Below, piece by piece: positions 5,467-59,895 of a DNA stretch of 64,000 nucleotides. Both the position numbers and the translations under genes were made by a program. Source of the stretch: Sinohyriopsis cumingii (Eukaryota; Mollusca; Bivalvia; Unionida; Unionidae); the NCBI GenBank assembly GCA_028554795.2, contig CM068828.1, positions 10,930,814-10,994,813 on the forward strand, given 5' to 3'. Below the pieces are notes generated by a model, which was not told the origin of the DNA, did not search any database, and was given only the letters and a program-made list of their open reading frames with translations. Positions within the stretch are counted from its first letter, which is position 1; the number at the start of each line of letters is the position of its first letter.

Positions 5467-5569
5467 AATTACTCAGACTTGCCATGACAGTTCAGCTAGA
5501 TTTGTGAAAATCATGTCCAGAAAAGGGAACACTTACTTAACGGAAGAGGATTTTGTACCATTCATACAG
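5467..5569 (+). CDS. PPP2R3: PPP2R3 exon a (first exon in window)
   Basis: Residues 1-34 of the visible protein, beginning [17 protein letters not shown] and ending DFVPFIQ. It corresponds to the family segment with the conserved CHD and EDF(V/I)P just before the DVVxTHPGL block. The acceptor is a T-rich tract ending CTGCAG at 5466 and the donor is CAG|GTAAAT. It opens with one base completing a codon from an upstream exon outside the window, so the gene continues 5'. A 42-bp tandem array ends about 30 bp upstream of the exon. Confidence 0.93.
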
Positions 5570-8500: not shown

Positions 8501-11500
8501 GCCATATTCCAGGCAGGATGAACATATTACGGACAGCCTGTCCAGAACAGACTGAGGCGTCCTCACAGAATGGTCTCTTCACCACTCAGTAACAGAGTCC
8601 CTGTTTTCCCTTTGCGAAAGATCTCTAATGGACTTGTTTGTGACCAAGCTTAACAACAAACTTCCCTTTTGCATGTCCTCTGTCCTGGATCCGAAAGCAT
8701 GGGCAGTCAATGCATTCAGCTTCCAGTGGGATTGCCTATTCACGTATGCCTTCCCACCTTTCTGACTGCTACCACAAATTCTTCAAAGAGTCCGAACTTC
8801 CACTGTTCAGATCATTCTCATTGCCTCATTGTGGCCCCCTAGACCTCTTGATAGAATGACCCTGGTCTCTACCACACAGGAGGTATCTCCTGTCACAGCA
8901 CTGGGGATCCCTTCTCTACAACAGCCCAGACATTCTCCACCTTCACGCCTGGCTCATCTCAAAAAAGCTTTCTGTCAGAACAAGTTTTCAGACAGTTACC
9001 AGTTATATCATTCAAGCCAGTAGAGCTTCTACATCCCATGTTTATGATGCCAGGTGGAGAATCTTCTGTGACAGGTGCAGTAGGAAATACATTGATCCTA
9101 TCTGCCCTTCTATAACAGCCATTGCTGATTTCCTTTTGTTCCTTTTTGAGACCAAAAGATGTTCAGTATCCACTACCAAAGGCTATCGAGCTGCCATCTC
9201 CAGCAAACTTAAATTCTCACAGGGCACAGACATCGGTTCAGATCCACATCTTGCTGATCTTATAAAGTTTTTTGAGCTTCAGAGACCGGTCTCTCGTTCC
9301 CTTGTGCCTAGATGGAATCTCTCCTGTGTTCTTTGGTCAGTAGCCAAAGCACCTTATGAACCGTTGAGTGAAGTTTCCTTTTTGGACCTCACACTCAAAA
9401 CTGTATTATTCCTTCTCACCTTTGCCTCGATGAGACAAAGAAGTGAAATTCATGCCTTGTCCATTGACTCTGGCTGTATTAGGTTTAATGGGAACTATGA
9501 CTCCATTCCCTTCTTTGCCAACCTGGTTTTCTTGCAAGAAATCAGTTAACTTCAGTAGCCCTCTTACCCACAGAGATTCCCAGTCTCAGTAAAATATGCA
9601 CAGGGGATGATCAAGATAGACTATTGTACCCTGTGCATGCTCTTCACTTCTATCTTAATGTCACCAAAGCAAAAAGAAAGGGTAGGAAATGTCTCATTCA
9701 CCCTGTTAAGGGCTCCATAGACATTTCAGCTGCCACTATCTCCTGGTGGATTGTCAGGACAATCAAATGAGCATACAAATCTGTCACCGATTGAGACCTC
9801 ACCTTCATGAAAATTAAAACCCATGAGGTTTGAGCTGTTGCTACCTCATGGGCCTCCTTGAATCATTCCTCTCTGGAGGATATTATGAAAGCAGCTATTT
9901 GGTGCTCTCATAATACCTTTTCCTCCTTCTACCTCCAATCATTAGTACATCAGAGCGCAATCATTTGTTCTCTAGGTCCCATTGTTATGGCACAGTGTGT
10001 TACTCAGAGAGACAAAAATATTCTGTATAAGTGGACCCCACCCCCAAAAACTACAGTTTAATGGGAGGAAATTACGTTTGCCCATCTGTATGTCCATAAC
10101 CACTTGCCCTAAACTGTATGCCCATAACCACTTGTCCTAAACTGTATGTCCATAACCACTTGCCCTAAACTACTGGGTAGAAATTCACCATCTGTATGTC
10201 CATAACCACTTGCCCTAAACTACTGGGCAGAAATTCACCATCTGTATGTCCATAACCACTTGCCCTAAACTACTGGGTAGAAATTCACCATCTATATGTC
10301 CATAACCACTTGCCCTAAACTGCTGGGTAGAAATTCACCATCTGTTTGTCCATAACCACTTGCCCTAAACTAGTGGGTAGAAATTTGCCATCTGTATGTC
10401 CATAACCACTTGCCCTAAACTGCTGGGTAGAAATTCACCATCTGTATGTCCATAACCACTTGCCCTAAACTACTGGGTAGAAATTCACCAAACTTGGTAC
10501 ATAGGTTACCAATGTAAATCACAATGATAGCCATCTACTACTGGGTATTGTTTTTTTTTATCTCTGCTAGAGTCTTTTAGAAAAAGAGGTCATTTATTTA
10601 AAAACTGCAACTACAGGGACATTTTCAAATATTTGGATTTTTTAGATAAACTTTCAATATAAAATAAGAATACATAATATATTTAAATGGTTTTGAGTTG
10701 AAACCCCTGGGTTAGATTGGAGGGTGGGATTTTAATAAAAGGTATGGAAAATTTGCATAGCAAGCATTTGAATTGAAACCCCTGGGTCAGATTGGGGGTG
10801 GGGGGATTGATAAAAGAATGGAGGATTTGCATGGGAGGCATTTGAATTGAAACCTTTTGGTCAGGTTGGGGTGGCATTTTAATAATAACCTGGAGATTTT
10901 GCATGGCAAGCATTTGAATGGAAACCTCTTGGTCAGATTGAGGGTGGGGGGATTTTAATAAAATGCATGGAGAATTTGCATGGCAAGCAATGGAAGAGAC
11001 TCTAGTTTTGGAAAACTTTATATTGGGACTGAGCCAGACATTTTAGTAATGCCATGTATGTATTCAGGTGTTGCTCATATATAGGTACATAAATTGATGG
11101 AAGCATGGATAGGTGGATGGATGGATGGATGGATGACAGATTGATTGGATTGATTGGATTTATTTTATAATTGATTTTGGTGTCAGTCTGAGGGTGAAAC
11201 ATTCAGTTCTTTTTGTTACAGAAATATTATGGCTGTTAGCTTTTTTCCCCTTCCTTTGCATATATATTTACCTGTTAGCTTGTTTCCCCTTCCTTTGCAT
11301 ATATATTTACCAGTTAGCTTTTTTCCCCTTCCTTTGCATATATATTTACTTGTTAGCTTTTCTCCCCTTCCTTTGCATATATATTTACCTGTTAGCTTGT
11401 TTCCCCTTCCTTTGCATATATATTTACTTGTTAGCTTGTTTCCCCTTCCTTTGCATATATATTTACTTGTTAGCTTTTTTCCCCTTCCTTTGCATATATA

Positions 11501-14500
11501 TTTACCTGTTTGTTTTTCAGGTAATAGCTAGGATATTCTATAGTGTCAATAGGTCTTGGTCAGGACATATAACAGCTCAAGAACTTAGGAAAAGCAACTT
11601 TTTACAGGTTAGTATGAATAAACCAATTCCAGATCCCAAATTATGCTTGCAAGCATCGTTTTAAAAGTTTGGATAGAAAATTCCAGACTTGGTTTTTTAT
11701 TATGGAAGCTTATTGAGCATGCGATTCAAACTCAAGCTGGAAGATCTGAAAATTCAACTCTGTTTAATTTTACTCTGAATAAAGCTAGAATCAGATCTTT
11801 TAGGATGTTTGTAGAGCCCATGTTATTGGGACAGTGTGACATGGCAGTCACGTTTCCAGTAGCAGTAGCTTTGATGGTGTTGTTATGGTTGTCATCAGGA
11901 TGTTTGTAGAACCCATGTTATTGGAACAGTGTGACATGGCAGTCATTTTTCCAATAGCAGTAGCTTTGATGGTGTCATTATGGTTGTTGTCAGGATGTTT
12001 GTAGAACCCATGTTATTGGGACAGTGTGACATGGCAGTCACTTTTCCAGTAGCAGTAGCTTTGATGGTGTTGTTATGGTTGTCATCAGGATGTTTGTAGA
12101 GCCCAAGTTATTGGGACAGTGTGATATGGCAGTCACTTTTCCAATAGCAGTAGCTTTGATAGTGTTGTTATGATTGTCATCAGGATGTTTGTAGAACCCA
12201 TGTTATTGGAACAGTATGACATGGCAGTCATTTTTCCAATAGCAGTGGCTTTGATGGTGTCATTATGGTTGTCATCAGGATGTTTGTAGAACCCATGTTA
12301 TTGGAACAGTGTGACATGGCAGTCATTTTTCCAATAGCAGTGGCTTTGCTGGTGTCATTATGGTTGTCATCAGGATGTTTGTAGAACCTATGTTATTGGG
12401 ACAGTGTGACATGGCAGTCACTTTTCCAGTAGCAGTAGCTTTGATGGTGTTGTTATGGTTGTCATCAGGATGTTTGTAGAGCCCATGTTATTGGGACAGT
12501 GTGACATGGCAGTCATTTTTCCAATAGCAGTAGCTTTGATGGTGTCATTATGGTTGTCATCAGGATGTTTGTAGAACCCAAGTTATTGGGACAGTGTGAC
12601 ATGGCAGTCACTTTTCCAATAGTAGCAGCTTTGATGGTATCATTATGATTGTCATGAGGATGTCTGTAGAGCCCATGTCACTGGGACAGTGTGACATGGC
12701 AGTCACTTTTCCAATAGCAGTAGTGTTTTAAGTTTTTGATAGAGTGTTTCAAGTTTTTGTTTGAAGTGCTTCAATTGTGTACATTTTCCCTCTTGATGGA
12801 TTCTATTCGTACTTGGCATAAATCATTTTGAAACTTAGACAATTCATTCTGCAACATTTGCTTGTCACTTTGACCTTGGGGGTCTTAGTTACAATCTTAG
12901 AAAATGTTTGTTATTTTTTTTGTTAAGATTTTGTCATTTGTTAATATTACTTAAATCTCTTGATGGATTTTGTTCATACTTAAGATGACACTTGGTCACT
13001 CCTTTGACCTTGGGATCATGGTCAGTAAAAATATTGCATTTCATTTTTTTATTTGCATGTATTTTTGTTGACCCCTTTATGAAGCTAAGACAATTCATTC
13101 CAGAAATATGCTCGCTTAATGTTTGTGACCTTGTTAAGGTCATATGTTTTACATGTGCGTATGTGAGAAAGCTTGCCAGTAGCTTCTCGTGGGTCAGTGG
13201 TTCTTCCCGGGTTCTTCCTCCACCATTAATACTGGCCATCATGCATAGCCTATCTTGTGCTGAAAAATGGCATTAAACCCCACAACAACAACAACATATT
13301 TTACAGCTTTTCTTGTTGTCTAGCTTTAATTCTTGTCTTTGACTTTTAAATTAAAATTGAATAAATGTGTGCCTATTTTAAATGAATTTTATGAATGAAA
13401 CAAATGATAGCAAGCCTTGGAAAGTAAAAGATTGACATAATTCAATGAGTTTCATAAATTTCCTTTGGAATTGGTGCAGATATAATATTCTGTTTAGCAT
13501 GTGTTGAAATGCACATCTTATTTGATGAAATTGCAGAATAGTGTAGCGTAATGACCATGAACAGTGTAGTGTAATGACCATCAATACTGTAGCGTAATGA
13601 CCATGATTAGTGTAGTGTAATGACCATGAATAGTGTAGTTTAATGGCAATGAATAGTGCTGTGTAATGACCATGAATAGTATAGTGTAATGACCATGAAT
13701 AGTGTAGTGTAATGACCATGAATATTATAGTGTAATGACCATGAATAGTGTAGTGTAATGACTGTGAATAGTGTAGTGTAATGACCATGAATATTGTAGT
13801 GTAATGACCATGAATAGTGTAGTTTAATGGCTATGAATAGTGCTGTGTAATGACCATGAATAGTATAGTGTAATGACCATAAATAGTGTAGTGTAATGGC
13901 CATGAATATTATAGTGTAATGACCATGAATAGTGTAGTGTAATGACCATGAATAGTGTAGTGAAATGACCACAAATAGTGTAGTGTAATGACCATTAATA
14001 TTATAGTGTAATGACCATGAATAGTGTAATGAAATGACCATGAATATTATAGTGTAATGACCATGAATACTGTAGTGTAATGACCATGAATAGTGTAGTG
14101 TAATGACCATGAATAGTGTAGTGAAATGACCACAAATAATGTAGTGTAATGACCATTAATAGTGCTGTGTAATGACCATGAATAGTGTAGTGTAATGACC
14201 ATGAACAGTATAGTGTAATGACCATCAATACTGTAGCATAATGACCACAAATAGTGTAGTGTAATGACCATTAATAGTGTAGTGTAATGACCATGAATAG
14301 TATAGTGTAATGACCATGAATAGTGTAGTGTAATGACCATTAATAGTGTAGTGTAATGACCATTAATAGTGCTGTGTAATGACCATGAATAGTGTAGTGA
14401 AATGACCATGAAAAACCATTAAATGCCTGTGTCATTATTCATTATTCATACATTGCATTATGACATCATTTCTAATGTCGTGAGGTGTTGTTATACATGT

Positions 14501-17500
14501 TGCATAAAGAAAATTATGATAGGGGTATATTAAAACCTAAATAATATGGCAGTCATGTTAAATAATATGGCAATTGTGTGATGAAAAATTTTGGGATATG
14601 CAGAGATAAAAGTTTTACCTGGGATATGCATCACTTGTGTTGACAAAGTATTTTCCTACTTTTATTTTCGATCGTGGTGTAATAAAGTACTTACTGAAGT
14701 AGTTCAGTACTGAGAGATAACAAAGGGGACATTATCTTTTACACATCTCATGATGACATATAGACATTACAATTGCAGCAAAATAGTTTATTTGTGCCTT
14801 CCCTTGTTTTCTCATCCCATAGACAGACTGGCTTCCAAATCATTAGGTGTCAGTTAAGAATTCAAAAACTAATGGGAAAGTTAGTAAATCAGTATGTACT
14901 CTAAATTCATATTTTTTCCCATTAGCAAAATAATGAAGATTTTGTTGGTAATTAATTTTATGGATTGAGCAGGAAGTCATATTATTTCCATGGTACGTTA
15001 CTGGTGTCATCATAAGTCTAAAGTTTTATCAGGACAATTTATAATTGATTGATTGAAATGTGCAAATTCTAAGGGCGGGGTGCTACAAATAAATTAAAAT
15101 TTCACATACAAGTGAAATTTTTAATAGATGACCTGTTATCAGTGACTAAGATTTATGCAGACCGGAAAAAATAGAAATTATGATTAAATGGAGACAACTG
15201 GGCTGAAATACACTTGTATATTGACAACTTATATTTGTGTAATGCACTCCAAAATGCATTAGATAATATACATGCATATGAAAAATTCATGAATTTGAGT
15301 ATTCGATCGTATGTTAGAAAATCCACGTATCAGTCAAATCCTGTTAGAAAACAACTAAAACTATGTATAAATAAATGGTAGTCCTTGGTTGATCTATATC
15401 CCATTGTCAACAAAAACGCATTTCCCAAAATAATTCACTCTGATATTTATTATCCTAGTAGCACATGGCTGCATATTTGTTTATATGCTGCATGTACATG
15501 TACTTAAATTGGCCTAGATTTTGGTCATCAAGAGACAACTACTGTCATACTGAGGCTACCAAGGGGATGAGGCTATTCATAGGGAAATGTAATGTAAATT
15601 AAAAAGTTTAACATTCTTGCAAGATGTCCCACCTTCATTTAACTCGATGACCAAATATCTATTGTTTCACAATATTGGAACTTTAATTTGAGTTTTAAAA
15701 AGCCATTGGTAGCGATCATAAGCATTTTGTTTCAAACAGGAAACTTTCACAGCACAATAAATATGTTCCAGTCACTATGAAAAATGAAACAAAGCTTTTA
15801 TTTAAGTTTGTTGCCAACTTCCTTTGATCAAAGGTCTTTGGCTTGATTTGATGAAGGTTATGCTAAAGGCAGTCTTTGAAGAACCAAACAAATACCAGTT
15901 ATTGCTACAGCAACATCAGATAATTATAAAACACTGACGGAGGCTGAATTATTAAAAAATTTGCTTAGTATATATACAGAATGATCGATGCTTCAAAGGT
16001 AATCGGTTTTCTTTGAAGTTTCAGAAAAACTATTTTTACTGGTACTTTTTTCAAAGAGGAAAAAAAATTGCCATGGTTTGGTAGGTTGTAGCCATTCCTG
16101 TTCCCACGTTCAGAGGTGTTCAATTGTAGCTATTCAGGTAGCATGACTATTTGGGTTATATTACAGCACAGAGCACTAAGGCCACATATCAGCATAAGCG
16201 GATAATGATATAAAAATGCTGTGTTAGGGTGGTTTGTCAATATGAACAAAGGATTTGTTTATGTAACACTAGATTCCAGTGCAATTTTATATCCATGTTT
16301 GCTGCTTCCTGTCATGGTGCCTTTGAATTTCTCAACTCGAAACCCAAGACTGTATATACAGTTTTTAACAGCCAAAAATGTTGTTGCCAAAGAGATTGCC
16401 AGATGGCATGTTTTGGTGCCAATAAGGAAAAAAAATAGCAATTTGCAACATTGGTGAAGCCTAGTGCAATCCCTGGCTACTCAGTTAGTACTCGTTGAAT
16501 TTGAAATGGATTAAGTTAAACATGCTACTCAGTGTTATCACTCTATTTTGCAGTGAATTAAATTATGTATGCTACTCTGTTAGTACTCAACATTGCAATG
16601 AATTTGAAATAGATTATGTTGTACATGTTACTTAATGTTAGTACTCTGTATTGCAGTGAATTTGAAATAGATTATGTTGTACATGTTACTTAATGTTAGT
16701 ACTCTATATTGCAATGAATTTGAAATAGATTATATTGTACATGTTACTTAATGTTAGTACTCTATATTGCGGTGAATTGGAAATAGATTATGTTGTACAT
16801 GTTACTTAATGTTAGTACTCTATATTGCAGTGAATTGGAAATGGATTTACTTGAGTCTGGAGGTGGTGTGAATCATCTTAAATCTATGCAGTATCATAAA
16901 TCATTATTTTTTTGTTGTGGCTGATATTGTCATTTTGCCAAATGTGATGATGATACATCAAGATAGCGATATGCAACATCACTATTTCACAGAAAAGTCA
17001 AAGATGGATCTTTATAATTGTGGTTCGTTGCAGCCTTGAAATCCGTGAAAGTCAGTATTGCATTAAATTGTGTATTCACAGTAATAAATAATAAGACAAA
17101 GTATCCACAATGTCTTACTTAATAGTGAGACAAAGAATTCAAAATATCTCAATAGTAACACAAAGTATTTACAATATCTCACTTAATTGTAAGACAAATT
17201 ATTTGAAATATCTCAATAGTTACAAAAAGGTTCACAATATCTCACCTAATACTAAGACAAAAGTATTCAGAATATTTCACTTTATAGTGAGACAAAGTAT
17301 TCACTGTATCTCAAATGATTGTAAGACAGAGTATTTGAAATATTTCACTTAAACTTTGTTTCTTTTTTCAGACAGTACAGTTACTGGAAGATGAAGATGA
17401 TATCAATCAAATAATGGACTACTTTTCCTATGAACATTTCTATGTGATATACTGTAAATTCTGGGAGTTAGACAAAGATCATGATCTCTATATAGACAGG

Positions 17501-20500
17501 AATGATCTAGCTCGACATAATGACCATGGTAAGTCTCACTAGCCTACATCATGATCTCTATATGACAGGAATGATCTATCTAGACATAATGACCATGGTA
17601 AGTCTCACTAGCCTTCATCATGATCTCTATATAGATAGGAATGATCTAGCTTGACATAATGACCATGGTAAGTCTCACTAGCCTTCATCATGATCTCTAT
17701 ATGACAGAAATGATCTAGCTAGACATAATGACCATAATAAGTCTCACTAGCCTTCATCATGATCTCTATATAGACAGGAATGATCTAGCTAGACATAATG
17801 ATCATGGTAAGTCACACTAGCCTTCATCATGATCTCTATATAGACAGGAATCATCTAGCTAGACATAATGACCATGGTAAGTCTCACTAGCCTTCATCAT
17901 GATCTCTATATAGACAGGAATGATCTAGCTAGACATAATGATCATGGTAAGTCACACTAGCCTTCATCATGATCTCTATATGACAGAAATGATCTAGCTA
18001 GACATAATGACCATGATAAGTCTCACTAGCCTTCATCATGATCTCTATATAGACAGGAATGATCTAGATAGACATAATGATCATGGTAAGTCTCACTAGC
18101 CTTCATCATCATAAATGGGATCTATATAGACAGGAATGATCTAGCTAGACATAATGATCATGGTAAGTCTCACTAGCCTTCATCATCATAAATGGAATCT
18201 ATATAGACAGGAATGATCTAGATAGACATAATGATCATGGTAAGTCTCACTAGCCTTCATCATCATAAATGGGATCTATATAGACAGGAATGATCTAGAT
18301 AGACATAATGATCATGGTAAGTATATGTCACTTTGGCATTTAGCACATACAGTCTCACTAGCCTTCATCATGAGAATTTGGATCACTTCAGGCTTTTCTG
18401 CATTAGCTTCAACTCTCAGCCATTTGAATCAGTTGGTCAAGTTTTAGAACATAATCAGCTGCTTGGACATGAAAACTATCCAAGATAATTAACTGCTACT
18501 ATGGTGTTTGCAGAATGTTAACAAAACATTAGATATCAATGAATTCAATTTTAAAAAAGTTACCTGAAATCAAGTATTTTTTAAGATACTTTTATCTGTA
18601 ATTTTACTAGAGCAGTGTTTTGTGAAAATGAAAAGACACAAAAGTAGCAGCTATTGTTTCTTGGCTGGTCTTCTGCTCAGAGTAATGATAGGCTGGTTTT
18701 CTAGTCAGAGTGGTTCTGATTTCTTCAAACACTCTGGCGATTGGCTGACACATGAAGCAGCTACTGACATAAACAAGCATTCTTAAATCTCAAGACATTG
18801 GATGGTGAGATTAAAATAGCTGGCAACATTGACAACTTTTCATCAACATTAAATATTTGTTTAAGGTTTAATAAGTCATATAAATGCTACATCAATTCAG
18901 TTGAAATGTTTTTTGCAACATCATTGTATGCATGAATTTTTTTACATAGATATGTCAGGACTTATGAAGATAATTTACAAAATGTTGAATTTTCCAATCA
19001 GAGGGTCTGGTTTGTACAATTTAAGTAATCGGAGGAAATAATGAAAGAGTTACTCCCCTTTTCTGGTTTCACAATGAGGTGCAAAAATACACAAAATTAT
19101 GACCAAAACCTAGGTTCTGTGGCACAAAAAGTGAAGGTCAGAGGTTTTCTTTGCATTTAATTACACTGTTTGAGTAACATTTTGGCAAAGATTTAGTGGT
19201 AGACACTGAGGAATATTTAATTCCTGAACCTTTCGTTCTCATCCACAATTTATTGGATCACTCCAATAAAATGACAAGCTTTTATTGCACTTAAAAGAAT
19301 AGAAAAATAAATATTTTGTTTACCTGATCTGAGAAAAGTGTATGCAAAATATATTTTGAAACCTAATTTTCAAGACTTTCAGAGACCATTTTATCTGCTT
19401 TCACATGCAATTCAAAAATTAATTTGAGTAGCAGGAGACAATACATTAAAGGAGACTAGAAATCAAAATTTTCCTTTTACGTATGTAATTCTCTACAGAT
19501 TTTAATTCGACTGCAATGTTTATAAATTAAATATCGTAAGCGGGTAGTGATTATATTGTGTGGAAGATACCACGATTCCGTAAATTGCCAAGTTTTTCTG
19601 AGTTTTGATGAGACGACAGATCACATGGTACCGTGACGCTATACTAGCCAGTCCTCGAATACAAACATAAACATTGGCGAGCGAGGCAGACAGGAGACCA
19701 CATTTGGGTTGCACATTCAAAAGTTGAATCTGCAATCTGATATAATAGTTTATGTACTGTACTGGTAAGTGCTAAAAGAAATTTGTTATGCACAGGCCCC
19801 GGGTTGGTGACTTAAATAAACTAAAATCCTGAATGAAATTCCACAAGCCCGGACAGTTCATACCTGTCAACTCTCAAGCCGGGAGAAAAACCTCCCAATT
19901 TTGGAGGTATTTCTACCTCCCGATCTCGTAATATGTCTCGATTTTGCGCAGCGAAGTCCCAATTATTACATTATGTCTGTCAATTTTCATTTGTCAGAAG
20001 AAACAAACCCAGCCCCAAACCATTTTTAAATATAACGTATGCAATCCACAGTCTAAACTGCCACACTGCAGACATCGTAGTGATATGACTGAAAAATTGT
20101 TAAAGCTACGTTAAAAATTCAAATCACACGCACACACGTCTAAACTGGCACTGGACGAAATAATTAATATCATACAACAGTTTTTTTTCTTTTTTTCTTC
20201 TTCAGTAAATAGAACGTGAAGATTAAACATTATTCAAGTAAATTTCAGATTTTTTAAACAACTACAACAGTACTATAGTATTAAAAAAAATTAAAAGAAT
20301 AAAATTGTCACCAATTAGCTTAAATGAATGATCACTTTGAAATTTTCTCTGCAAATAAAATCGCATCTCCATTTCCACCAAAGAAACTCGGCCAGTTAAC
20401 ACCTGACATTCCTTTATCGTATATGAAAAGTTTAATTATCATGATTAAATTACAAGGAATAAAACAAAATATACCATGCAGTATATGTGGCCCTAAAGAA

Positions 20501-22263: not shown

Positions 22264-25200
22264 AAAGATGGTAATTGTTATTAATTGTTTTATTGTGGGC
22301 GTGGGTGGATGGTAATGTTATTATCAATTCTGAACTATGCAGTACTAAAATGTGAAAATAGAGCAGAAAAATTATGTTACCTATTTCATTCCATCATAAT
22401 AATTAATCTAAAAATCATTTTTAAATGGTTGGAATCTGCCATTATATGAGTAAATTCTGTACTTTAATTAGATAGAAATCATCCCACACTACTAAGCCCC
22501 TTTTCATTGTGTGGATGTTGCTATTGATCTTATTTAATTGGACAAATTTTGTTTTATCATTCTTACTTAATTTATTTCACTTAAGTTTAATTCCTGACTC
22601 ACAAAAACCAATTTTAATGCAATTTCACCTCATTAAATACTCTATTTTTGTGTTTCTATGCATTATTAGGACACATCCATGCTGGAATATCCCTCATTAT
22701 AAAGTCCTTCACGTAAAATTTAGGTAACTTATTTCTCACATGAACAGCATTATAACAAGCAAATGATGTGTACGATATGCCTATCTGACTCACTCACAGA
22801 CTCTCCAGATGACGTCATAAATGGTTGCAGGGTTCCTCGTGATTTTACTATTAAAAGAATAAATGTTTCTTATAATAATAAAATATGTTTACAACAAATA
22901 ACTTAAAAAAACTTTTATAAAATGACCTGTATTGTCTAATGTGACACTTTGGTCAGTGATACACCATCTTTTGTTTTCTAACACTATTTCCTTATGAGAA
23001 ATGAGAGAAAATTACAATTCTGCCCTTTTCTTAGGATTTTTCAATCCCACAAAATTCTGTATGATGAATTCAATTAAATTTTGTTGACTTTCTCCATTGC
23101 AGCAATCAATATGAAAGTCATAGATAGGATATTTTCTGGGTCAGTCACAAGGTGAGTATAGTCAGCTTGATTATTATTATTTTTATTGTCCACACAGTTG
23201 TTAGTTGGAAATGGGATCTAGATTGTTATTATTGTCCACACAGTTGTTAGTTGGAAATGGCATCTAGGTTGTTATTATTGTCCACAGTTGTTAGTTGGAA
23301 ATGGCATATAGATTGTTATTTTTGTCCACACAGTTGTTAGTTGGAAATGGGATCTAGATTGTTATTATTGTCCACACAGTTGATAGTTAGAAATGGGATC
23401 TAGATTATTATTATTGTCCACACAGTTGATAGTTAGAAATGGGATCTAGATTGTTATTATTGTCCACACAGTTGTTAGTTGGAGATGGGATCTAGATTAT
23501 TATTATTGTCCACACAGTTGATAGTTAGAAATGGGATCTAGATTATTATTATTGTCCACACAGTTGATAAGTAGATATGGGATCTAGATTGTTATTATTG
23601 TCCACACAGTTGATAGTTAGAAATGGGATCTAGATTGTTATTATTGTCCACACAGTTGATAAGTAGATATGGGATCTAGATTGTTATTATTGTCCACACC
23701 GTTGTTAGTTGGAGATGGGATCTAGTTTATTATTATTGTCCACACAGTTGTTAGTTGGAAATGGGATCTAGATTATTATTATTGTCCACACAGTTGATAA
23801 GTAGATATGGGATCTAGATTGTTATTATTGTCCACACAGTTGTTAGTTAGAAATGGGATCTAGATTATTATTATTGTCCACACAGTTGTTAGTTGGAGAT
23901 GGGATCTAGATTGTTATTATTGTCCACACAATTGTTAGTTGGAAATGGGATCTAGATTATTATTATTGTCCACACAGTTGTTAGTTGGAAATGGGATCTA
24001 GATTATTATTATTGTCCACACAGTTGTTAGTTGGAGATGGGATCTAGATTATTATTATTGTCCACACAGTTGTTAGTTGGAAATGGGATTTAGATTGTTA
24101 TTATTGTCCACACAGTTGATAGTTAGAAATAGGATCTAGATTATTATTATTGTCCACACAGTTGCTAGTTGGAAATGGCATCTAGATTGTTATTTTTGTC
24201 CACACAGTTGTTAGTTAGAAATGGGATCTAGATTATTATTATTGTCCACACAGTTGTTAGTTGGAAATGGGATCTAGATTATTATTATTGTCCACACAGT
24301 TGTTAGTTGGAAATGGGATCTAGATTATTATTATTGTCCACACAGTTGTTAGTTGGAGATGGGATCTAGATTATTATTATTGTCCACACAGTTGTTAGTT
24401 GGAAATGGGATTTAGATTGTTATTATTGTCCACACAGTTGATAGTTAGAAATGGGATCTAGATTATTATTATTGTCCACACAGTTGTTAGTTGGAAATGG
24501 GATCTAGATTGTTATTATTGTCCACACAGTTGATAGTTAGAAATGGGATCTAGATTGTTATTATTGTCCACACAGTTGTTAGTTGGAAATGGGATTTAGA
24601 TTGTTATTATTGTCCACACTGTTGATAGTTCGAAATAGCATCTAGATTATTATTATTGTCCACACAGTTGTTAGTTGGAAGTGGGATATACATTCAATTT
24701 GTTATTATTATCCACACAGTTGTTAGTTGGAAATGGGATCTAGATTGTTATTATTGTCCACACAGTTGCTAGTTGGAAATAGGATCTAGATTATTATTAT
24801 TGTCCACACAGTTGCTAGTTGGAAATGGTATCTAGATTATTATTATTGTCCACACAGTTGTTAGTTGGAAATAGGATCTAGATTATTATTATTGTCCACA
24901 CAGCTGTTAGTTGGAAATAGGATCTAGATTATTATTATTGTCCACACAGTTGTTAGTTGGAAATGGGATCTAGATTATTATTATTGTCCACACAGTTGAT
25001 AAGTAGATATGGGATCTAGATTGTTATTATTGTCCACACAGTTGTTAGTTGGAGATGGGATCTAGATTATTATTATTGTCCACACCGTTGTTAGTTGGAG
25101 ATGGGATCTAGATTGTTGTTATTGTCCACACAGTTGTTAGTTGGAGATGGGATCTAGTTTATTATTATTGTCCACACCGTTGTTAGTTGGAGATGGGATC

Positions 25201-28200
25201 TAGTTTATTATTATTGTCCACACAGTTGATAGTTAGAAATGGGATCTAGATTATTATTATTGTCCACACAGTTGGTAGTTGGAAATGGGATCTAGATTGT
25301 TATTATTGTCCACACAGTTGATAGTTAGAAATGGGATCTAGATTGTTATTATTGTCCACACAGTTGATAGTTAGAAATGGGATCTAGATTATTATTATTG
25401 TCCACACGGTTGTTAGTTGGAAATGGGATCTAGATTCAATTTGTTATTATTGTCCACACAGTTGTTAGTTGGAAATGGGATCTAGATTGTTATTATTGTC
25501 CACAATTGTTAGTTGGAAATGGGATCTAGATTATTATTATTGTCCACACAGTTGATAGTTAGAGCTGAGATCTAGATTGTTATTATTATCCACACAGTTG
25601 TTAGTTGGAGATGGGATCTAGATTATTATTATTGTCCACACAATTGTTAGTGACTTGGCCTCCTTTAATTAGTAAATATAGTAAAACTTGTCTATAAAGG
25701 ACACTGAAGCATAGTTATCCATCACATTGACATTGACAATGTCCATGAAATCAGGGATTCACATGTGATAGCCATAATGACCAAGTATCTGTTATATGTA
25801 GGTGTTTGTTTACACGGTGTTTGTTTATTACAGACACTGAAAAGACTACAAAAAGTGGTCATTATGAGCATTTGTTCTTAACACTGATTTTGGAAATAAC
25901 AATGAAATCAGTTTTTAAAAAAAACAACTTTTATGTTGTGTCCATTAAGGATAATCACTTGTGTGATGTCAAGGTTTTTGACATTTTGAAAAATGTATAT
26001 TTTTACATCATTAGGTATCCAAGCAACCCAGTGACTAAAAAATGTTTAGGTTGTTTTCAGGTACTGCGCTTAATTAAATATCGATCCCCAAGTTAATGGC
26101 ATCCCACAGTAAAGCATGGGGAAAAAGATCACAGTCCGTAATTGTCCATAAAGTAATGGCTCACCAAGGTCTAAAAATTGTGCTTGTTATCACATTCGAA
26201 AAGGGTGTGTTGGTCAGTGAATCTTTCAGGGTGACACTGTTATTAAGATTACATTGTTTCCACAACAAAAAGACTTCACTGCCAATTTACGGCAAGTCAT
26301 ACATTACTTAAGAGTTTTTCACAGCCTTTTCATTTACTTTCTTTTTTTGACAGGACTGCAATATTGAAAATGTTATTAGACATTTTCATTTTCAATACTG
26401 AATACAAGAAAGACGCAACCAAATCACTTTATTTTCAGTCTCTCCTATAGTTTCTACAGTTGCAATATACTTATGTAAAAAAATGCCATGTTATTGATGA
26501 TGTTGTCTTGTAATGACAGTACCATTTAACTGATGGTAACACTGATTGTTCAAAAGAAAGGATTATGTTAGAGCAGGTTTCCTCTAGTAGATGTCTCTTC
26601 TATAACTAGATTTTGTCGTATAGGAGACCTATATATATACATATATATAGAACACTGAATAGACCACTAAATTTTGTCGATCATGCGCAGGTATTCTTAT
26701 TAAAAATGTGGAATTACAATGACATTATGAAAAAGGCAGATTCATATATGGTGCCATTTTTGAGCAGGTGTTCTTTATATGGAGGCATCCATTAAGGTAG
26801 ATTGGAGGTATCCATTAAGGTAGGTTGGAGAAGATTCATAGTACTAATTCAGTTCCCATAGTAAACCTATAGAAACACCTTGATATTAAAAATTCAATAA
26901 CTTTAAATTTCTGAGTGCTCGTAATCAAACCTATATTTATCAGTATAGATGCATCCTGGATGACAGCTTTTGTGCAGAGAAAACCACATGAGCTGCGGCA
27001 TTCTCTGGATCTATGTGTGCTTGAAACGTGTGCTTTCAGTTCCACGCCAAAAGAGTCAGGTGCTATTTCAGTAATTAGTTTTGCAAACTCAAGTCTGTTA
27101 GGGGACTCCATCAATAAAACAATGTCTCGATGTTTTTTAAAATTATAACTAGGATAAGCTCTCGTAGATTCTTTTTACTAAAATCTAACTTTCATTATGA
27201 ACCATTCCTGGCCAGCCAGTCCCATCCATGCTCGATTTTATGTTCACCCATTTTCCAGACTGGTTTTTTTTTATTTTTCCATACCATTAGTACTGTGAGT
27301 CCTTAAGGTAGGTTAGAAGTATCCATTAAAGTAGGATGTATTTATGCATAAAAGTAGGAAGGAGGTGTGCATTAAAGTAGGATGGAGGTGTGCATTAAAG
27401 TAGGATGTAGGTGTGCATAAAAGTAGGATGGAGGTATCCATAAAAGTAGGATGGAGGTGTGCATTAAAGTAGGATGGAGGTGTGCATTAAAGTAGGATGG
27501 AGGTGTGCATTAAAGTAGGATGGAGGTATGCATTAAAGTAGGATGGAGGTGTGCATAAAAGTAGGATGGAGGTGTGCATTAAAGTAGGATGTAGGTATGC
27601 ATTAAAGTAGGATGGAGGTGTGCATTAAAGTAGGATGTAGGTGTGCATAAAAGTAGGATGGAGGTATGCATTAAAGTAGGATGGAGGTGTGCATTAAAGT
27701 AGGATGGAGGTATCCATAAAAGTAGGATGGAGGTATCCATAAAAGTAGGATGGAGGTGTGCATTAAAGTCGGATGGAGGTGTGCATAAAAGTAGGATGGA
27801 GGTATCCATAAAAGTAGGATGGAGGTGTGCATTAAAGTAGGATGGAGGTGTGCATTAAAGTAGGATGGAGGTATGCATTAAAGTAGGATGGAGGTATGCA
27901 TAAAAGTAGGATGTAGGTGTGCATTAAAGTAGGATGGAGGTGTGCATTAAAGTAGGATGTAGGTATGCATTAAAGTAGGATGGAGGTGTGCATTAAAGTA
28001 GGATGTAGGTGTGCATAAAAGTAGGATGGAGGTATGCATTAAAGTAGGATGGAGGTGTGCATTAAAGTAGGATGGAGGTATCCATAAAAGTAGGATGGAG
28101 GTATCCATAAAAGTAGGATGGAGGTGTGCATTAAAGTCGGATGGAGGTGTGCATAAAAGTAGGATGGAGGTATCCATAAAAGTAGGATGGAGGTGTGAAT

Positions 28201-31200
28201 TAAAGTAGGATGGAGGTGTGCATTAAAGTAGGATGGAGGTGTGCATTAAAGTAGGATGGAGGTATGCATTAAAGTAGGATGGAGGTATGCATAAAAGTAG
28301 GATGGAGGTGTGCATAAAAGTAGGATGGAGGTGTGCATTAAAGTAGGATGTAAGTATGCATAAAAGTAGGATGGAGGTATGCATTAAAGTAGGATGGAGG
28401 TGTGCATTAAAGTAGGATGGAGGTATCCATAAAAGTAGGATGGAGGTATCCATAAAAGTAGGATGGAGGTGTGCATTAAAGTCGGATGGAGGTGTGCATA
28501 AAAGTAGGATGGAGGTGTGCATTAAAGTAGGATGGAGGTATGCATAAAAGTAGGATGGAGGTATGCATTAAAGTAGAATGGAGGTATGCATTAAAGTAGG
28601 ATGGAGGTGTGCATTAAGGTAGGATGGAGGTATGCATTAAAGTAGGATGGAGGTGTGCATTAAAGTAGGATGGAGGTGTGCATTAAAGTAGGATGTAGGT
28701 GTGCATTAAAGTAGGATGGAGGTGTGCATAAAAGTAGGATGGAGGTGTGCATTAAAGTAGGATGGAGGTATGCATTAAAGTAGGATGGAGGTGTGCATTA
28801 AAGTAGGATGTAGGTGTGCATAAAAGTAGGATGTAGGTGTGCATTAAAGTAGGATGGAGGTGTTCATTAAAGTAGGATGGAGGTGTGCATTAAAGTAGGA
28901 TGTAGCTATGCATAAAAGTAGGATGTAGCTATGCATAAAAGTAGGATGGAGGTATGCATTAAAGTAGGATGGAGGTGTGCATTAAAGCAGGATGGAGGTA
29001 TGCATTAAAGTAGGATGGAGGTGTGCATTAAAGTAGGATGTAGCTATGCTTTAAAGTAGGATGGAAGTATGCATTAAAGTAGGATGGAGGTGTGCATTAA
29101 GGTAGGATGGAGGTATGCATAAAAGTAGGATGGAGGTGTGCATTAAAGTAGGATGGAGGTGTGCATTAAAGTAGGATGTAGCTATGCATAAAAGTAGGAT
29201 GTAGGTATGCATAAAAGTAGGATGGAGGTGTGCATTAAAGTAGGATGGAGGTGTGCATTAAAGTAGAATGGAGGTGTGCATTAAAGTAGGATGGAGGTGT
29301 GCATTAAAGTAGGATGGAGGTATGCATTAAAGTAGGATGGAGGTGTGCATTAAAGTAGGATGGAGGTGTGCATTAAAGTCGGATGGAGGTGTGCATAAAA
29401 GTAGGATGGAGGTGTGCATTAAAGTAGGATGGAGGTATGCATAAAAGTAGGATGGAGGTATGCATTAAAGTAGGATGGAGGTATGCATTAAAGTAGGATG
29501 GAGGTGTGCATTAAGGTAGGATGGAGGTATGCATTAAAGTAGGATGGAGGTGTGCATTAAAGTAGGCTGGAGGTGTGCATTAAAGTAGGATGTAGGTGTG
29601 CATAAAAGTAGGATGTAGGTGTGCATTAAAGTAGGATGGAGGTCTGCATAAAGTAGGATGAAGGTGTGCATTAAAGTAGGATGGAGGTATGCATAAAAGT
29701 AGGATGGAGGTATGCATTAAAGTAGGATGGAGGTGTGCATTAAGGTAGGATGGAGGTTTGCATTAAAGTAGGATGGAGGTGTGCATTAAAGTAGGATGGA
29801 GGTGTGCATTAAAGGAGGATGTAGGTGTGCATAAAAGTAGGATGTAGGTGTGCATTAAAGTAGGATGGAGGTGTGCATTAAAGTAGGATGGAGGTGTGCA
29901 TTAAAGTAGGATGTAGCTATGCATAAAAGTAGGATGGATGTATGCATAAAAGTAGGATGGAGGTATGCATTAAAGTAGGATGGAGGTGTGCATTAAAGTA
30001 GCATGGAGGTATGCATTAAAGTAGGATGGAGGTGTGCATTAAAGTAGGATGTAGCTATGCATTAAAGTAGGATGGAGGTATGCATTAAAGTAGGATGGAG
30101 GTGTGCATTAAGGTAGGATGGAGGTATGCATAAAAGTAGGATGGAGGTGTGCATTAAAGTAGGATGGAGGTGTGCATTAAAGTAGAATGGAGGTGTGCAG
30201 TAAAGTAGGATGGAGGTATGCATTAAAGTAGGATGGAGGTGTGCATTAAAGTAGGATGGAGGTATGCATTAAAGTAGGATGGAGGTGTGCATTAAAGTAG
30301 GATGGAGGTGTGTATTAAAGTAGGATGGAGGTATGCATTAAAGTAGGATGGAGGTGTGCATAAAAGTAGGATGTAGGTGTGCATTAAAGTAGGATGTAGC
30401 TGTGCATAAAAGTAGGATGGAGGTGTGCATTAAAGTAGGATGGAGGTATGCATTAAAGTAGGATGGAGGTGTGCATTAAAGTAGGATGTAGGTGTGCATA
30501 AAAGTAGGATGGAGGTGTGCATTAAAGTAGGATGGAGGTGTGCATTAAAGTAGGATGGAGGTGTGCATTAAAGTAGGATGTAGGTATGCATAAAAGTAGG
30601 ATGGAGGTGTGCATTAAAGTAGGATGTAGCTGTGCATTAAAGTAGGATGGAGGTGTGCATTAAAGTAGGATGTAGGTGTGCATTAAAGTAGGATGTGGGT
30701 ATGCATTAAAGTAGGATGGAGGTGTGCATTAAAGTAGGATGGAGGTATCCATAAAAGTAGGTTTTACTGTTTTTTTGAGGAGAGACAGGTCATAAGCTTT
30801 GAACAGATTTGTGGGAAAAGTAGTTTTAGTAACAGAAAAGGATGAGATGAAGGAAGAACTGGATTGAGGATGGAGTCAGGACCCATTTATAAGTTTCATA
30901 TGTCTTTGTACCCATTCCAGTTTCAACTTAGTCCATGAACCTTATTATGAGGTAAAGAGGTAACTCACATTAGACTGTGTACTGTATTCACCTTTATGCA
31001 ATAGACACCTAATTACAAACAGCATAGACCCTGGCTGAGTCATACCAGAGACTTACAAAAAGGTACTATCAGTTGCCTCGCTAGGTACTTAGTATTAAAG
31101 GTTAGTTGTTAGGACTGGTTGGATTGGTGTCAGGATAATGTGACTGGGTGGGACATCATGCTACATGTCTGTGGTATGATGCTCCAGTGCTAGACATCAC

Positions 31201-57050: not shown

Positions 57051-59895
57051 TATAGTTTTATTCTTTCACTATAAATTTTGTCTTCCAGAATATAATTTGT
57101 TAATTTATGTATCTTACAAAGTGCCTTTTTGACTGCTTTGAATTCTGCCTTGGGTTTTTTTAACGTGGTTTGTAAGTACATATTTGCCAGAAGATAACCG
57201 TCCACTGTTATTTCAAGATCTGAATCAGGAAATGGGCTTACTTTGCATGCATCTGTTTAAAGTGATAATTTACTTAAATCTTGCTGCTGTGCCTTTTTAT
57301 CCACAATACATTGGAACTTCATGTATTACTTGCATATTGTTGTTGTTTTGTATATTACTTTGAATATGATTACTTGTAAAATGTTATATTTAATTTCTTC
57401 AAAATTTGATATTTTGAAATACTATGCATTCACTGTTTCTTCATAGCATACCATTTATGTTTGATTTTTCATTGGGTACCGATATTGTTGATTTCATGGT
57501 TCATCCGACAATGAATTTTACGACTAAATGAACTATGATTCTTTTGTGAAAACACTCTTCCACTCCACGACTGTAAACATTGATGAAATGTCCATTGTAT
57601 GCCCAACCACAAAAATAAAAATCCTGGAAAATAAAGATTCATTTCCAATTCTGAAAGCAAAAGATTCTAATTATCCATTGGGTTTCATGAATCTCATTTA
57701 CAAATGTAAGAGTCAGTTTATTACACGATAAAAGTTCTGATTTTATTTTACCAAGCCACAAATTAGTGTCTAGTGAAATGACTGTGAAATACATTCAGAT
57801 GTCTCAATCTTTAAGCTGTTCCTTTGTATGATGTGATGGTGTCATTTATGATGTCGTATGTATTACATATATGAAAATTATGGGTGTATTAACATAAATA
57901 ACATAGTAGTCATGTGATAAAAATGAATTCGCACTAGCCAAAGGTTTAAGCACTCCAATATTTCTTTAAAATATGTATGGATTGCTGTACACTATCTTAA
58001 ACTACTTATTGTTCAGCATCAATCTCCATGTAAGGTTAGTACATAGAAATGTAGGGGAGAAAGTACCCTGTCATTAATTGTCCATATAGAATAGGTGAGT
58101 GAACATTTAACTGTTGATCGAATTTGTACACGCTGAAAATCCTAGACTCTTGTACAAGTACAGAAAGGTGTGTGTTGGTGAGCGAAGATTTTAGACTGAC
58201 ACGCTATGAGATCACTTCAACCATGTCATTTATATCCAGTGTCAAAGTTCATATTGCTATGATACGCTGAAATATAACATGACATCATATCAACAATATC
58301 ATAATGTAAAGTTTATGTTGTTTTAAACTGTGCAGGAGGCATTGAATGTATGAGTGTACATCATTAAATATAGTATGCTTAAGGTCAACAGCTGCATTAA
58401 TAAATCTTGTAAATTTTCTTACAGTTTTGGATTTGCACAAGTATAAGCACAATATCGCAACATTTTTTTCTTTCTTTAAGACCGCTGCTCATGATTACCT
58501 TAGCCCAGTTTATAAAAGTGCTTGGACTAAGTTGTCTACTTCACACGTTTTTAAAAGTGCTTGGACCATGCACAGCTATGTTATCAGAAGCCACAAGTGT
58601 CTACTTGATGAGTTTTTTTTATAAAAAAATCCATTAAAGATGTGACAGTTGATACAGCTTACTTTTAAAATTCATTTTGTTTCCCGTTTGAATCTGTTTT
58701 AAAATCCTTGTTTCTGACAAGTTTAACCTTTCTTGGTTTCACAGAACAACTCATTTTTTGAGTGTCAAGATCTTGGTAGCAGATAATGTATTCTGTTGTT
58801 GTTAGTATTCAGCAGTGTGGTCATAGATGTTAGTGTTTAATTTTAAACTTTGAATTTAAAATCAGATAGCAGATAATATATTCTGTTGTTGTTAGTATTC
58901 AGCAGTGTGGTCATAGATGTTAGTGTTTAATTTTAAACTTTGAATTTAAAATCAGAGTTTGTCATATTTTAAGAAAAAAGATTGGTTTCTAATGACAATA
59001 CGTTTTGTAACTCTTTGTTATTAAAGACTGATGTAGGTTCAAAGTATCATTCTACAATTTCCTATGCAGTTGGTATTTTCCCTGTATGTTGTGAAAGTTA
59101 AACCGATTCTATTTTACATACAAACCACATTAAACATTTATTTACAGAAATAATTGAGGCATTTTTAATTGAGTCTTTGCACATTGTAGTATGCTTACAA
59201 TTAGCTAATACTAGTATTTTTCTGTAATAATTTAGTTCATATTGTAATGTTTGAGTAATAAATCAAATGAAGCAGAAACTTGTAGGAATTATTTTTATTA
59301 AAATGATGTTTAAAATGTTACAGTGGCATTCAGTTGCCATTTTTGCAGAGTAATTTTTCATAGACTGCTTTCACATATATTGTTTGACTGTAACCCAATT
59401 TTGGAATTTTATTGTGAAATGAATGAGAATTAAATGACCAGTCTGTGACATGGCAAACATGGTGGCCAGTGACTTATGTAAACCTCAGAGAAACTTTCAA
59501 ATGCTGTTTAGTCATACTGAATCAAGCATCTAGAAGTTGTTACTTTAAGAATAGAAAATGGCAACTTAAGTACGTAAGGTATGTCTTGTTTATTACTCAG
59601 ATATAATCATATCAGCCAAATTATTGCAGAAAAGTATATGTATCAGCTGATCTTGAAAATACTCTATATACTTATAAGAGCTATTTAAAATATGAGTTAG
59701 CTCCCTTTCCCTTAAAGCTTTATTGCAATGTGTATAGTTTAGAAGCAGGGATCAGCTTAAATAAAGGATTACAAATAATAAAATTATGAAATGCATGGAG
59801 ACAGTAATAAGGCATGCAAAAGAGAATGATGTTAACAAAGATAAAAAATGTATAGGTAACCACTTGCTGGTTTAGAAGTTGAATATCACAGATTT
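57051..59895. other. Intergenic DNA with one recent duplication
   Basis: AT-rich DNA. A segment of about 87 bp beginning AGCAGATAATGTATTCTGTT (about 58779) is followed at once by a near-identical copy (to about 58955). Frames at 57469-57731 on both strands and at 58346-58624 have no recognisable domain. Confidence 0.5.

What the first reader, a model, noticed from the sequence alone, without database searches (positions are those of the whole stretch)
17481..18325. An EF-hand exon end and its 5' splice site are tandemly copied about twelve times
Each 70-bp unit carries 16 codons of EF-hand 1 of the PP2A B'' subunit plus the exon's donor. Ten of twelve copies keep GTAAGT, so splicing faces a row of near-identical donors after the real one. 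Using any distal donor, or retaining the intron, reads into TAG at 17540-17542 and would truncate the protein just after EF-hand 1. The array could buffer donor loss, pull U1 binding, or act as a calcium-sensor switch through unproductive splicing. The copying is seen directly; the consequences are inference.
Basis: partly seen in the sequence, partly recalled or inferred. Interest (0 to 1): 0.82.

Follow-up and report, generated by a model that had tools for sequence, protein, structure and literature searches.

The report
Exon edge copied into a minisatellite
The last 51 bases of one exon of an animal phosphatase-subunit gene, with its splice donor, have been copied about twelve times in a row into the next intron; this looks like a recent, probably tolerated duplication of a kind already described in lancelets, in a gene unusually full of such repeats.

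Summary
Twelve units of about 70 bp (17478-18373) each carry the last 51 nt of exon 4 (157 nt, 17372-17528) of a PP2A B'' regulatory-subunit gene, its donor and 13 nt of intron. Ten of 12 keep GTAAGT. Donor 17529 is the ancestral one: the exon is also 157 nt in mouse Ppp2r3a and in one animal-like contig, which has a single copy. All nine downstream GTAAGT donors would add TAG 17540-17542, so none can replace it.

The array is one of 26 minisatellites covering 29% of the window. Random placement would put arrays on 3.4 exons; one is seen. Its two ends share ATCATGA, which suggests one microhomology-mediated duplication, later amplified. Its donors are no better kept than the rest of the unit, and exon-derived parts carry frame-breaking indels. 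Best read as a neutral 'mirage' minisatellite, a kind described in amphioxus genes; human IFI6 has a comparable donor minisatellite. Nothing found supports a calcium switch or donor buffer, but RNA was not available.

A side result may matter more: 5 of the 19 other exon edges have a minisatellite within 40 bp (0.42 expected if arrays avoid exons), a post hoc hint that arrays start next to splice sites here.

The parts
17372..17528 (+). Exon 4 of the PP2A B'' gene (157 nt), containing EF-hand 1; its end is copy 1 of the array
   Evidence: 157 nt also in mouse Ppp2r3a exon 9 (PMC2529318, table passage) and in L001
17478..18373 (+). Whole array: 12 units plus the terminal 7-bp ATCATGA
17478..17547 (+). 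Unit 1: exon end, true donor 17529 and first intron bases
17529..17534 (+). Ancestral donor GTAAGT
17540..17542 (+). TAG read in frame by each of the nine distal-donor products
17548..18034 (+). Units 2-8 (69 or 70 bp); units 4 and 8 have lost GT; units 2, 4 and 8 carry a 1-bp deletion
18035..18104 (+). Unit 9 (70 bp), donor 18086
18105..18258 (+). Units 10-11 (77 bp, block variant at the 5' end), donors 18163 and 18240
18259..18366 (+). Unit 12 (77 bp plus a 31-bp interruption), donor 18317
17478..17484 (+). ATCATGA in the exon: left end of the array
18367..18373 (+). ATCATGA in the intron: right end of the array
23103..23151 (+). Exon 5 (49 nt), reached from donor 17529 across a 5574-nt intron
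17087..17352 (+). A second minisatellite, ending 19 bp before exon 4

Best explanation
This is a 'mirage': a minisatellite born when one tandem duplication crossed an exon-intron boundary. Its breakpoints lay at a shared ATCATGA, one in exon 4 and one in the intron (the shared ends are shown; that this was the first event is inferred). Slippage or unequal exchange then raised it to twelve units (inferred from the likeness of neighbours). The first unit keeps the whole exon and donor, so every added copy falls inside the intron and is cut out when donor 17529 is used. The exon-derived copies have no coding role and drift. Correct splicing is thought to use the donor nearest the acceptor of the same exon (exon definition; inferred, not tested). 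Any use of a distal donor would end the protein after EF-hand 1 and feed nonsense-mediated decay (stop shown, decay inferred). The array is thus mainly a tolerated by-product of a region very prone to minisatellites.
For: Array ends share 7 bp; at random breakpoints 70 or 101 bp apart, about 0.0009 of 200,000 draws each reach 7 bp. Neighbouring units are more alike than distant ones (Spearman 0.46, permutation P 0.0024); units 5 and 7 are identical. Off-consensus cells in intronic copies: exon part 24 of 561, donor 2 of 66, intron part 2 of 143. Units 2, 4 and 8 have a 1-bp deletion in the exon part, units 10-12 a block variant 7 bp longer. 26 arrays cover 29% of the window. Exon 4 is 157 nt in mouse Ppp2r3a and Ppp2r3d (PMC2529318, table passage) and in L001, where the exon end occurs once. 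[quoted passage not shown]
Against: No RNA was available, so use of donor 17529 alone is not shown. In human IFI6 two downstream repeat donors are used (PMC4526556, introduction passage), so distal donors in such arrays are not always silent. The ten donors have the same core (ATG|GTAAGT), and predicted RNA structure does not single out the first. Arrays kept off exons sit next to exon edges more often than chance, so 'just another random minisatellite' may be incomplete. Only one other locus (L001) speaks for a lineage-specific origin.
Confidence: 0.8

Rival explanations
1. The array is a working unproductive-splicing switch: a share of transcripts uses distal donors or keeps the intron, ends at TAG 17540 and is degraded, lowering PP2A B'' output.
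For: All nine distal GTAAGT donors give the same stop. Distal donors share the core of the true donor. IFI6 uses downstream repeat donors (PMC4526556, passage).
Against: Donors are not better kept than the rest of the unit. The array is absent from L001. Amphioxus mirages are said not to disturb splicing (PMC3087553, passage).
Confidence: 0.08
2. The row of strong donors acts through U1: it attracts U1 snRNP to the start of the 5.6-kb intron, strengthening exon 4 definition or shielding the intron from early polyadenylation.
For: 10 of the 31 GTRAGT motifs on the + strand of the window lie in this array. The intron has 8 AATAAA.
Against: Not tested directly. Intron 3, of similar length, also has 8 AATAAA and no array with a donor row was seen there. 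No sign of selection on the donors.
Confidence: 0.07
3. The array is an assembly artefact, wholly or in copy number.
For: No reads were available. PMC3902484 (passage) tells of differing repeat numbers between two versions of a lancelet locus.
Against: Units differ by substitutions, indels and length classes in an orderly way, unlike one read repeated. The array is only about 0.9 kb.
Confidence: 0.05

Closest known systems
[quoted passage not shown] similar repeats in PGBD5) - PMC3087553 and PMC3902484, passages seen
   Same: Tandem units that span an exon-intron boundary and carry splice signals; unit length (Adh3 10-72 bp, here about 70); stepwise likeness between units; the gene stays readable.
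   Different: Another gene (PP2A B''), a host that I could not name, twelve units; no RNA or population data here.
Human IFI6 (6-16) donor minisatellite - Turri et al. 1995, title seen in reference lists and one citing passage (PMC4526556)
   Same: A minisatellite that supplies several donors to one transcript.
   Different: In IFI6 two downstream donors are used and make other isoforms; here every downstream GTAAGT donor adds a stop.
UBC array of dual-specific splice sites - PMC10809524 (abstract and outline seen)
   Same: A tandem array with a splice signal in every unit.
   Different: UBC sites are AGGT and delimit coding units; here the donor is TG|GT and the copies are intronic.
Human internal tandem repeats at exon-intron boundaries in segmental duplications - PMC2812944 (passages seen)
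   Same: Minisatellites at exon-intron boundaries.
   Different: There they are reported to give alternative splicing and novel introns; no such change is shown here.

Membership tests
Mirage minisatellite | Tandem repeat units span an exon-intron boundary | tested here: met
   Each unit holds the exon 4 end, the donor site and intron bases
Mirage minisatellite | Many, not all, units carry splice signals | tested here: met
   10 of 12 units keep GTAAGT
Mirage minisatellite | Tandem turnover: neighbouring units are alike | tested here: met
   Distance rises with spacing, permutation P 0.0024; units 5 and 7 identical, 4 and 8 one base apart
Mirage minisatellite | End units set apart from the homogenised core | tested here: inconclusive
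   Units 1 and 12 are 91% alike, but the lowest pairs (90%) are unit 4 with 11 and 12
Mirage minisatellite | Regular splicing is not disturbed | not testable with these tools
   No RNA
Mirage minisatellite | Unit number varies between haplotypes or somatically | not testable with these tools
   One sequence only
Mirage minisatellite | Host is a cephalochordate (where the name was coined) | tested here: inconclusive
   Host not named; no whole genome held, scans of viral contigs and genome contigs did not name it
IFI6-type donor minisatellite | Downstream donors give other readable proteins | tested here: not met
   All nine distal products stop at codon 57 of the exon-4 reading
Dual-specific splice site array / AGGT intron gain | AGGT at the repeated site | tested here: not met
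   The two bases before GT are TG in all ten donor-bearing units
PP2A B'' regulatory subunit (PR72/PR70) | EF-hand_13 plus EF-hand pair, and strong match to solved B'' chains | tested here: met
   PF17958 E 2.2e-36 and PF13499 E 5.6e-16; 4i5l_B E 1.2e-141
Poison-splicing regulatory switch | The alternative form is conserved or selected | tested here: not met
   Absent in L001, one locus only; donors drift at the rate of the unit

The most novel reading that the evidence does not exclude
In this genome minisatellites are born preferentially next to splice sites: some process tied to exon edges (transcription, R-loops or splicing signals) seeds tandem duplications there. Exon 4 is then the case in which a seed crossed the boundary, and did so without harm because the first unit keeps exon and donor whole. 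Mirages would be the visible tip of an edge-biased duplication process rather than a lancelet oddity.
Probability: 0.22. Interest if true: 0.6.

Novelty: new member of a known kind. Interest (0 to 1): 0.36.

Why it matters
Ten donors with the same core in a row behind one exon are a natural experiment on how the spliceosome picks among equal sites, since using any but the first would break the protein. The array also seems to record its own birth (the 7-bp match at both ends) and shows why a boundary-crossing duplication on the donor side can be harmless. If the edge bias of minisatellites holds genome-wide, it would point to a mutational process linked to exon ends, and to a supply of raw material for new introns.

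Tried and rejected
Donor choice by RNA structure: the chance that the true donor is unpaired ranks third of the ten GTAAGT-bearing copies at each of three settings. Of four single units folded (1, 2, 7 and 12 of 12), three fold worse than their shuffles and unit 7 somewhat better (z -1.03). Rejected as an explanation.

Donors as back-ups: rejected, since all nine distal products share one stop.

Intron 7 as a new intron: its position lies 31 nt from that of mouse (exons of 145 and 150 nt here, 176 and 119 in mouse). L001 has the same 145-nt exon, so a gain in this lineage alone is not supported.

Unconditional permutation of arrays: no excess at exon edges (6 of 20 edges within 40 bp, 6.3 expected, P 0.60), because random arrays often cover exons. 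The excess appears only when arrays are kept largely or wholly off exons. Both are reported. The 20 edges include the end of exon 10, which is the end of the coding sequence and not a splice site.

Other exon edges: 60-nt edges of all ten exons searched against the window. Repeated edges: exon 4 donor (12 further matches) and, without exon sequence, exon 3 acceptor side (6 further matches). Also weak lone matches that I did not follow: exon 4 acceptor side (two 20-nt matches, E 0.02) and exon 8 acceptor side (45 nt, 76%, minus strand at 59507-59550, E 7.6e-4). The other 16 edges matched only themselves.

Host: no Rfam match at gathering score, no tRNA, no whole genome held, no relative in viral contigs.

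Papers not held: Turri 1995 and Canestro 2002; I saw only their titles in reference lists and what other papers say of them. From the search listings I opened only PMC2529318, PMC10809524 and PMC2812944 (and PMC3087553, already found); the rest I know by title and start of abstract.

Full report
What is there. The finding's array is real. Tandem Repeats Finder reports a 70-bp unit at 17478-18322. It has 12 units: nine of 69 or 70 bp, two of 77 bp, and a last one of 77 bp with a 31-bp interruption, which carries the repeat on to 18373. Unit 1 holds the last 51 nt of an exon, the donor, and 13 nt of intron after GTAAGT; the others are its copies. Ten of 12 units keep GTAAGT; the units at 17737 and 18016 read ATAAGT.

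The gene. Ten exons between 5467 and 48648 join into one frame (the exon 8 end is 42295, one base later than set there, corrected by eye). The 375-aa product matches solved chains of PP2A B'' beta (4i5l_B, 475 bits, E 1.2e-141) and alpha (4i5j_A, 467 bits, E 4.3e-139) about equally, and Pfam EF-hand_13 and EF-hand_7. About equal likeness to both paralogues suggests an animal outside the vertebrates (inference). The first 86 residues of my recalled query had no match in the window, so the start of the gene is not in this exon set.

Which donor is the real one. The sizes of exons 1-9 here are 103, 75, 87, 157, 49, 87, 145, 150 and 107 nt (exon 8 corrected). Mouse Ppp2r3a exons 6-14a are 103, 75, 87, 157, 49, 90, 176, 119 and 107, and exon 9 (157 nt) has the donor gtaagt (PMC2529318, table passage). 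A scan of genome contigs with the exon's protein returned one relative, L001, filed under a bacterial bin but with animal-like exons. Its exon is again 157 nt, with 121 of 157 bases alike and the donor gtatgc, and its last 50 nt with the donor occur once in the 6494 bases held. So 17529 is the ancestral donor, and the array arose in the lineage of the window (or was lost in that of L001).

Consequence of the other donors. Splicing from each of the nine downstream GTAAGT donors to exon 5 reads HNDHGKSH and stops at TAG 17540-17542. The copies therefore cannot replace a lost donor. Products would lack EF-hand 2 and all that follows, and would be expected to be degraded (inference).

How it arose. 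The array begins in the exon and ends in the intron with the same 7 bases, ATCATGA. Random breakpoints 70 or 101 bp apart outside the arrays share 7 or more bases in about 0.0009 of 200,000 draws each. This fits one microhomology-mediated duplication followed by growth: nearby units are more alike than distant ones (Spearman 0.46, P 0.0024), units 5 and 7 are identical, and units 4 and 8 differ by one base.

No sign of selection on the copies. In units 2-12, off-consensus cells are 24 of 561 in the exon part, 2 of 66 in the donor and 2 of 143 in the intron part (columns absent from unit 1 are left out). From the drift outside the donor, 8.8 of 11 donors should be intact; 9 of 11 are. Units 2, 4 and 8 have a 1-bp deletion in the exon part, and units 10-12 a block variant 7 bp longer. 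RNA folding does not single out the true donor: it ranks third of the ten GTAAGT copies at each of three settings.

Background. The window holds 26 minisatellites of at least 100 bp (periods of 10 or more, overlapping rows merged), covering 29%. If they were strewn at random, 3.4 of ten exons would be touched; one is (P 0.09 for one or fewer). A touched exon is thus no surprise; if anything, exons are spared.

Edge bias. With arrays kept off exons and the exon 4 array set aside, 5 of 19 exon edges have an array within 40 bp, against 0.42 expected (0 of 4000 placements reach 5). One of the 19 is the end of the coding sequence in exon 10, not a splice site. The five are exon 1 acceptor (35 bp), exon 3 acceptor (3 bp), exon 4 acceptor (19 bp), exon 5 donor (24 bp) and exon 9 donor (16 bp). 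In twelve settings (six array thresholds, two ranges, 1000 placements each) 5 edges are seen in ten and 3 in the two with arrays of 400 bp or more; P is 0 to 0.002 at 40 bp and 0.001 to 0.032 at 100 bp. At 400 bp the excess fades (7 seen, 3.67 expected, P 0.052). Against this: the distance was chosen after looking, one gene is involved, and the unconditional test shows no excess. In L001 a 25-bp repeat of 4.5 copies also begins about 45 bp after the same donor, which was not part of the test.

What is known. Tandem repeats that span an exon-intron boundary are called 'mirages' in amphioxus (Adh3, globins), with units of 10-72 bp in Adh3; many units carry splice signals, and RT-PCR is said to suggest that splicing is not disturbed (PMC3087553, passages). 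Lancelet PGBD5 has similar repeats (PMC3902484, passages). In human IFI6 two downstream repeat units serve as donors (PMC4526556, passage); [quoted passage not shown] In human segmental duplications, tandem repeats at exon-intron boundaries can alter splicing (PMC2812944, passages). The window's array meets three of the mirage features tested; two were inconclusive and two could not be tested. It is not of the AGGT kind seen in UBC (PMC10809524, abstract).

Verdict. A true and tidy case of a known kind, in another gene and an unnamed animal. The regulatory readings lack support but need RNA to be closed. The edge bias is the lead most worth following.

Noticed in passing
window exon edges at 5467, 11521, 17372, 23151, 42817: Five of 19 exon edges (exon 4 donor set aside) have a minisatellite within 3-35 bp; 0.42 expected within 40 bp when arrays are placed off exons. 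Post hoc, one gene, no excess in the unconditional test.
   Followed up: partly
window 11233-11517: A 39-bp array of about 7 units reaches to 3 bp before exon 3; six places in it match 25-28 of the last 30 nt of that intron at 88-92%, and the TAGs that follow these places have 12-13 pyrimidines in the 20 bases before them (15 at the true acceptor), so it is a row of weak acceptor-like sites.
   Followed up: partly
window 23176-25651: A 46-bp array of about 54 units starts 24 bp after the exon 5 donor.
   Followed up: no
window 27303-30761: A 23-bp array of about 150 units with strong strand asymmetry (GC skew 0.752 at 28001-30000).
   Followed up: no
window 8860-9546: A 229-aa open frame that by eye looks like a tyrosine-recombinase (DIRS-like) retroelement; not tested.
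   Followed up: no
window 59507-59550: On the minus strand, a 45-nt stretch 76% like the exon 8 acceptor edge (E 7.6e-4).
   Followed up: no
L001 (CALBPI010000051.1): A contig filed under an uncultured gammaproteobacterium carries spliced-type PP2A B'' exons; probably host DNA in the bin, or a chimeric contig (G+C 0.51 overall, 0.42 in the last part).
   Followed up: partly
L001 5203-5315: A 25-bp repeat of 4.5 copies begins about 45 bp after the exon 4 donor of L001: another repeat close behind the same donor.
   Followed up: no
L001 5707-5826: The stretches of exons 5 and 6 seem to be one exon in L001 (one unbroken tblastn match).
   Followed up: no
window 41011/42146 and L001 6381: The intron after exon 7 lies 31 nt upstream of the mouse position but at the same place as in L001 (145-nt exon in both).
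   Followed up: partly
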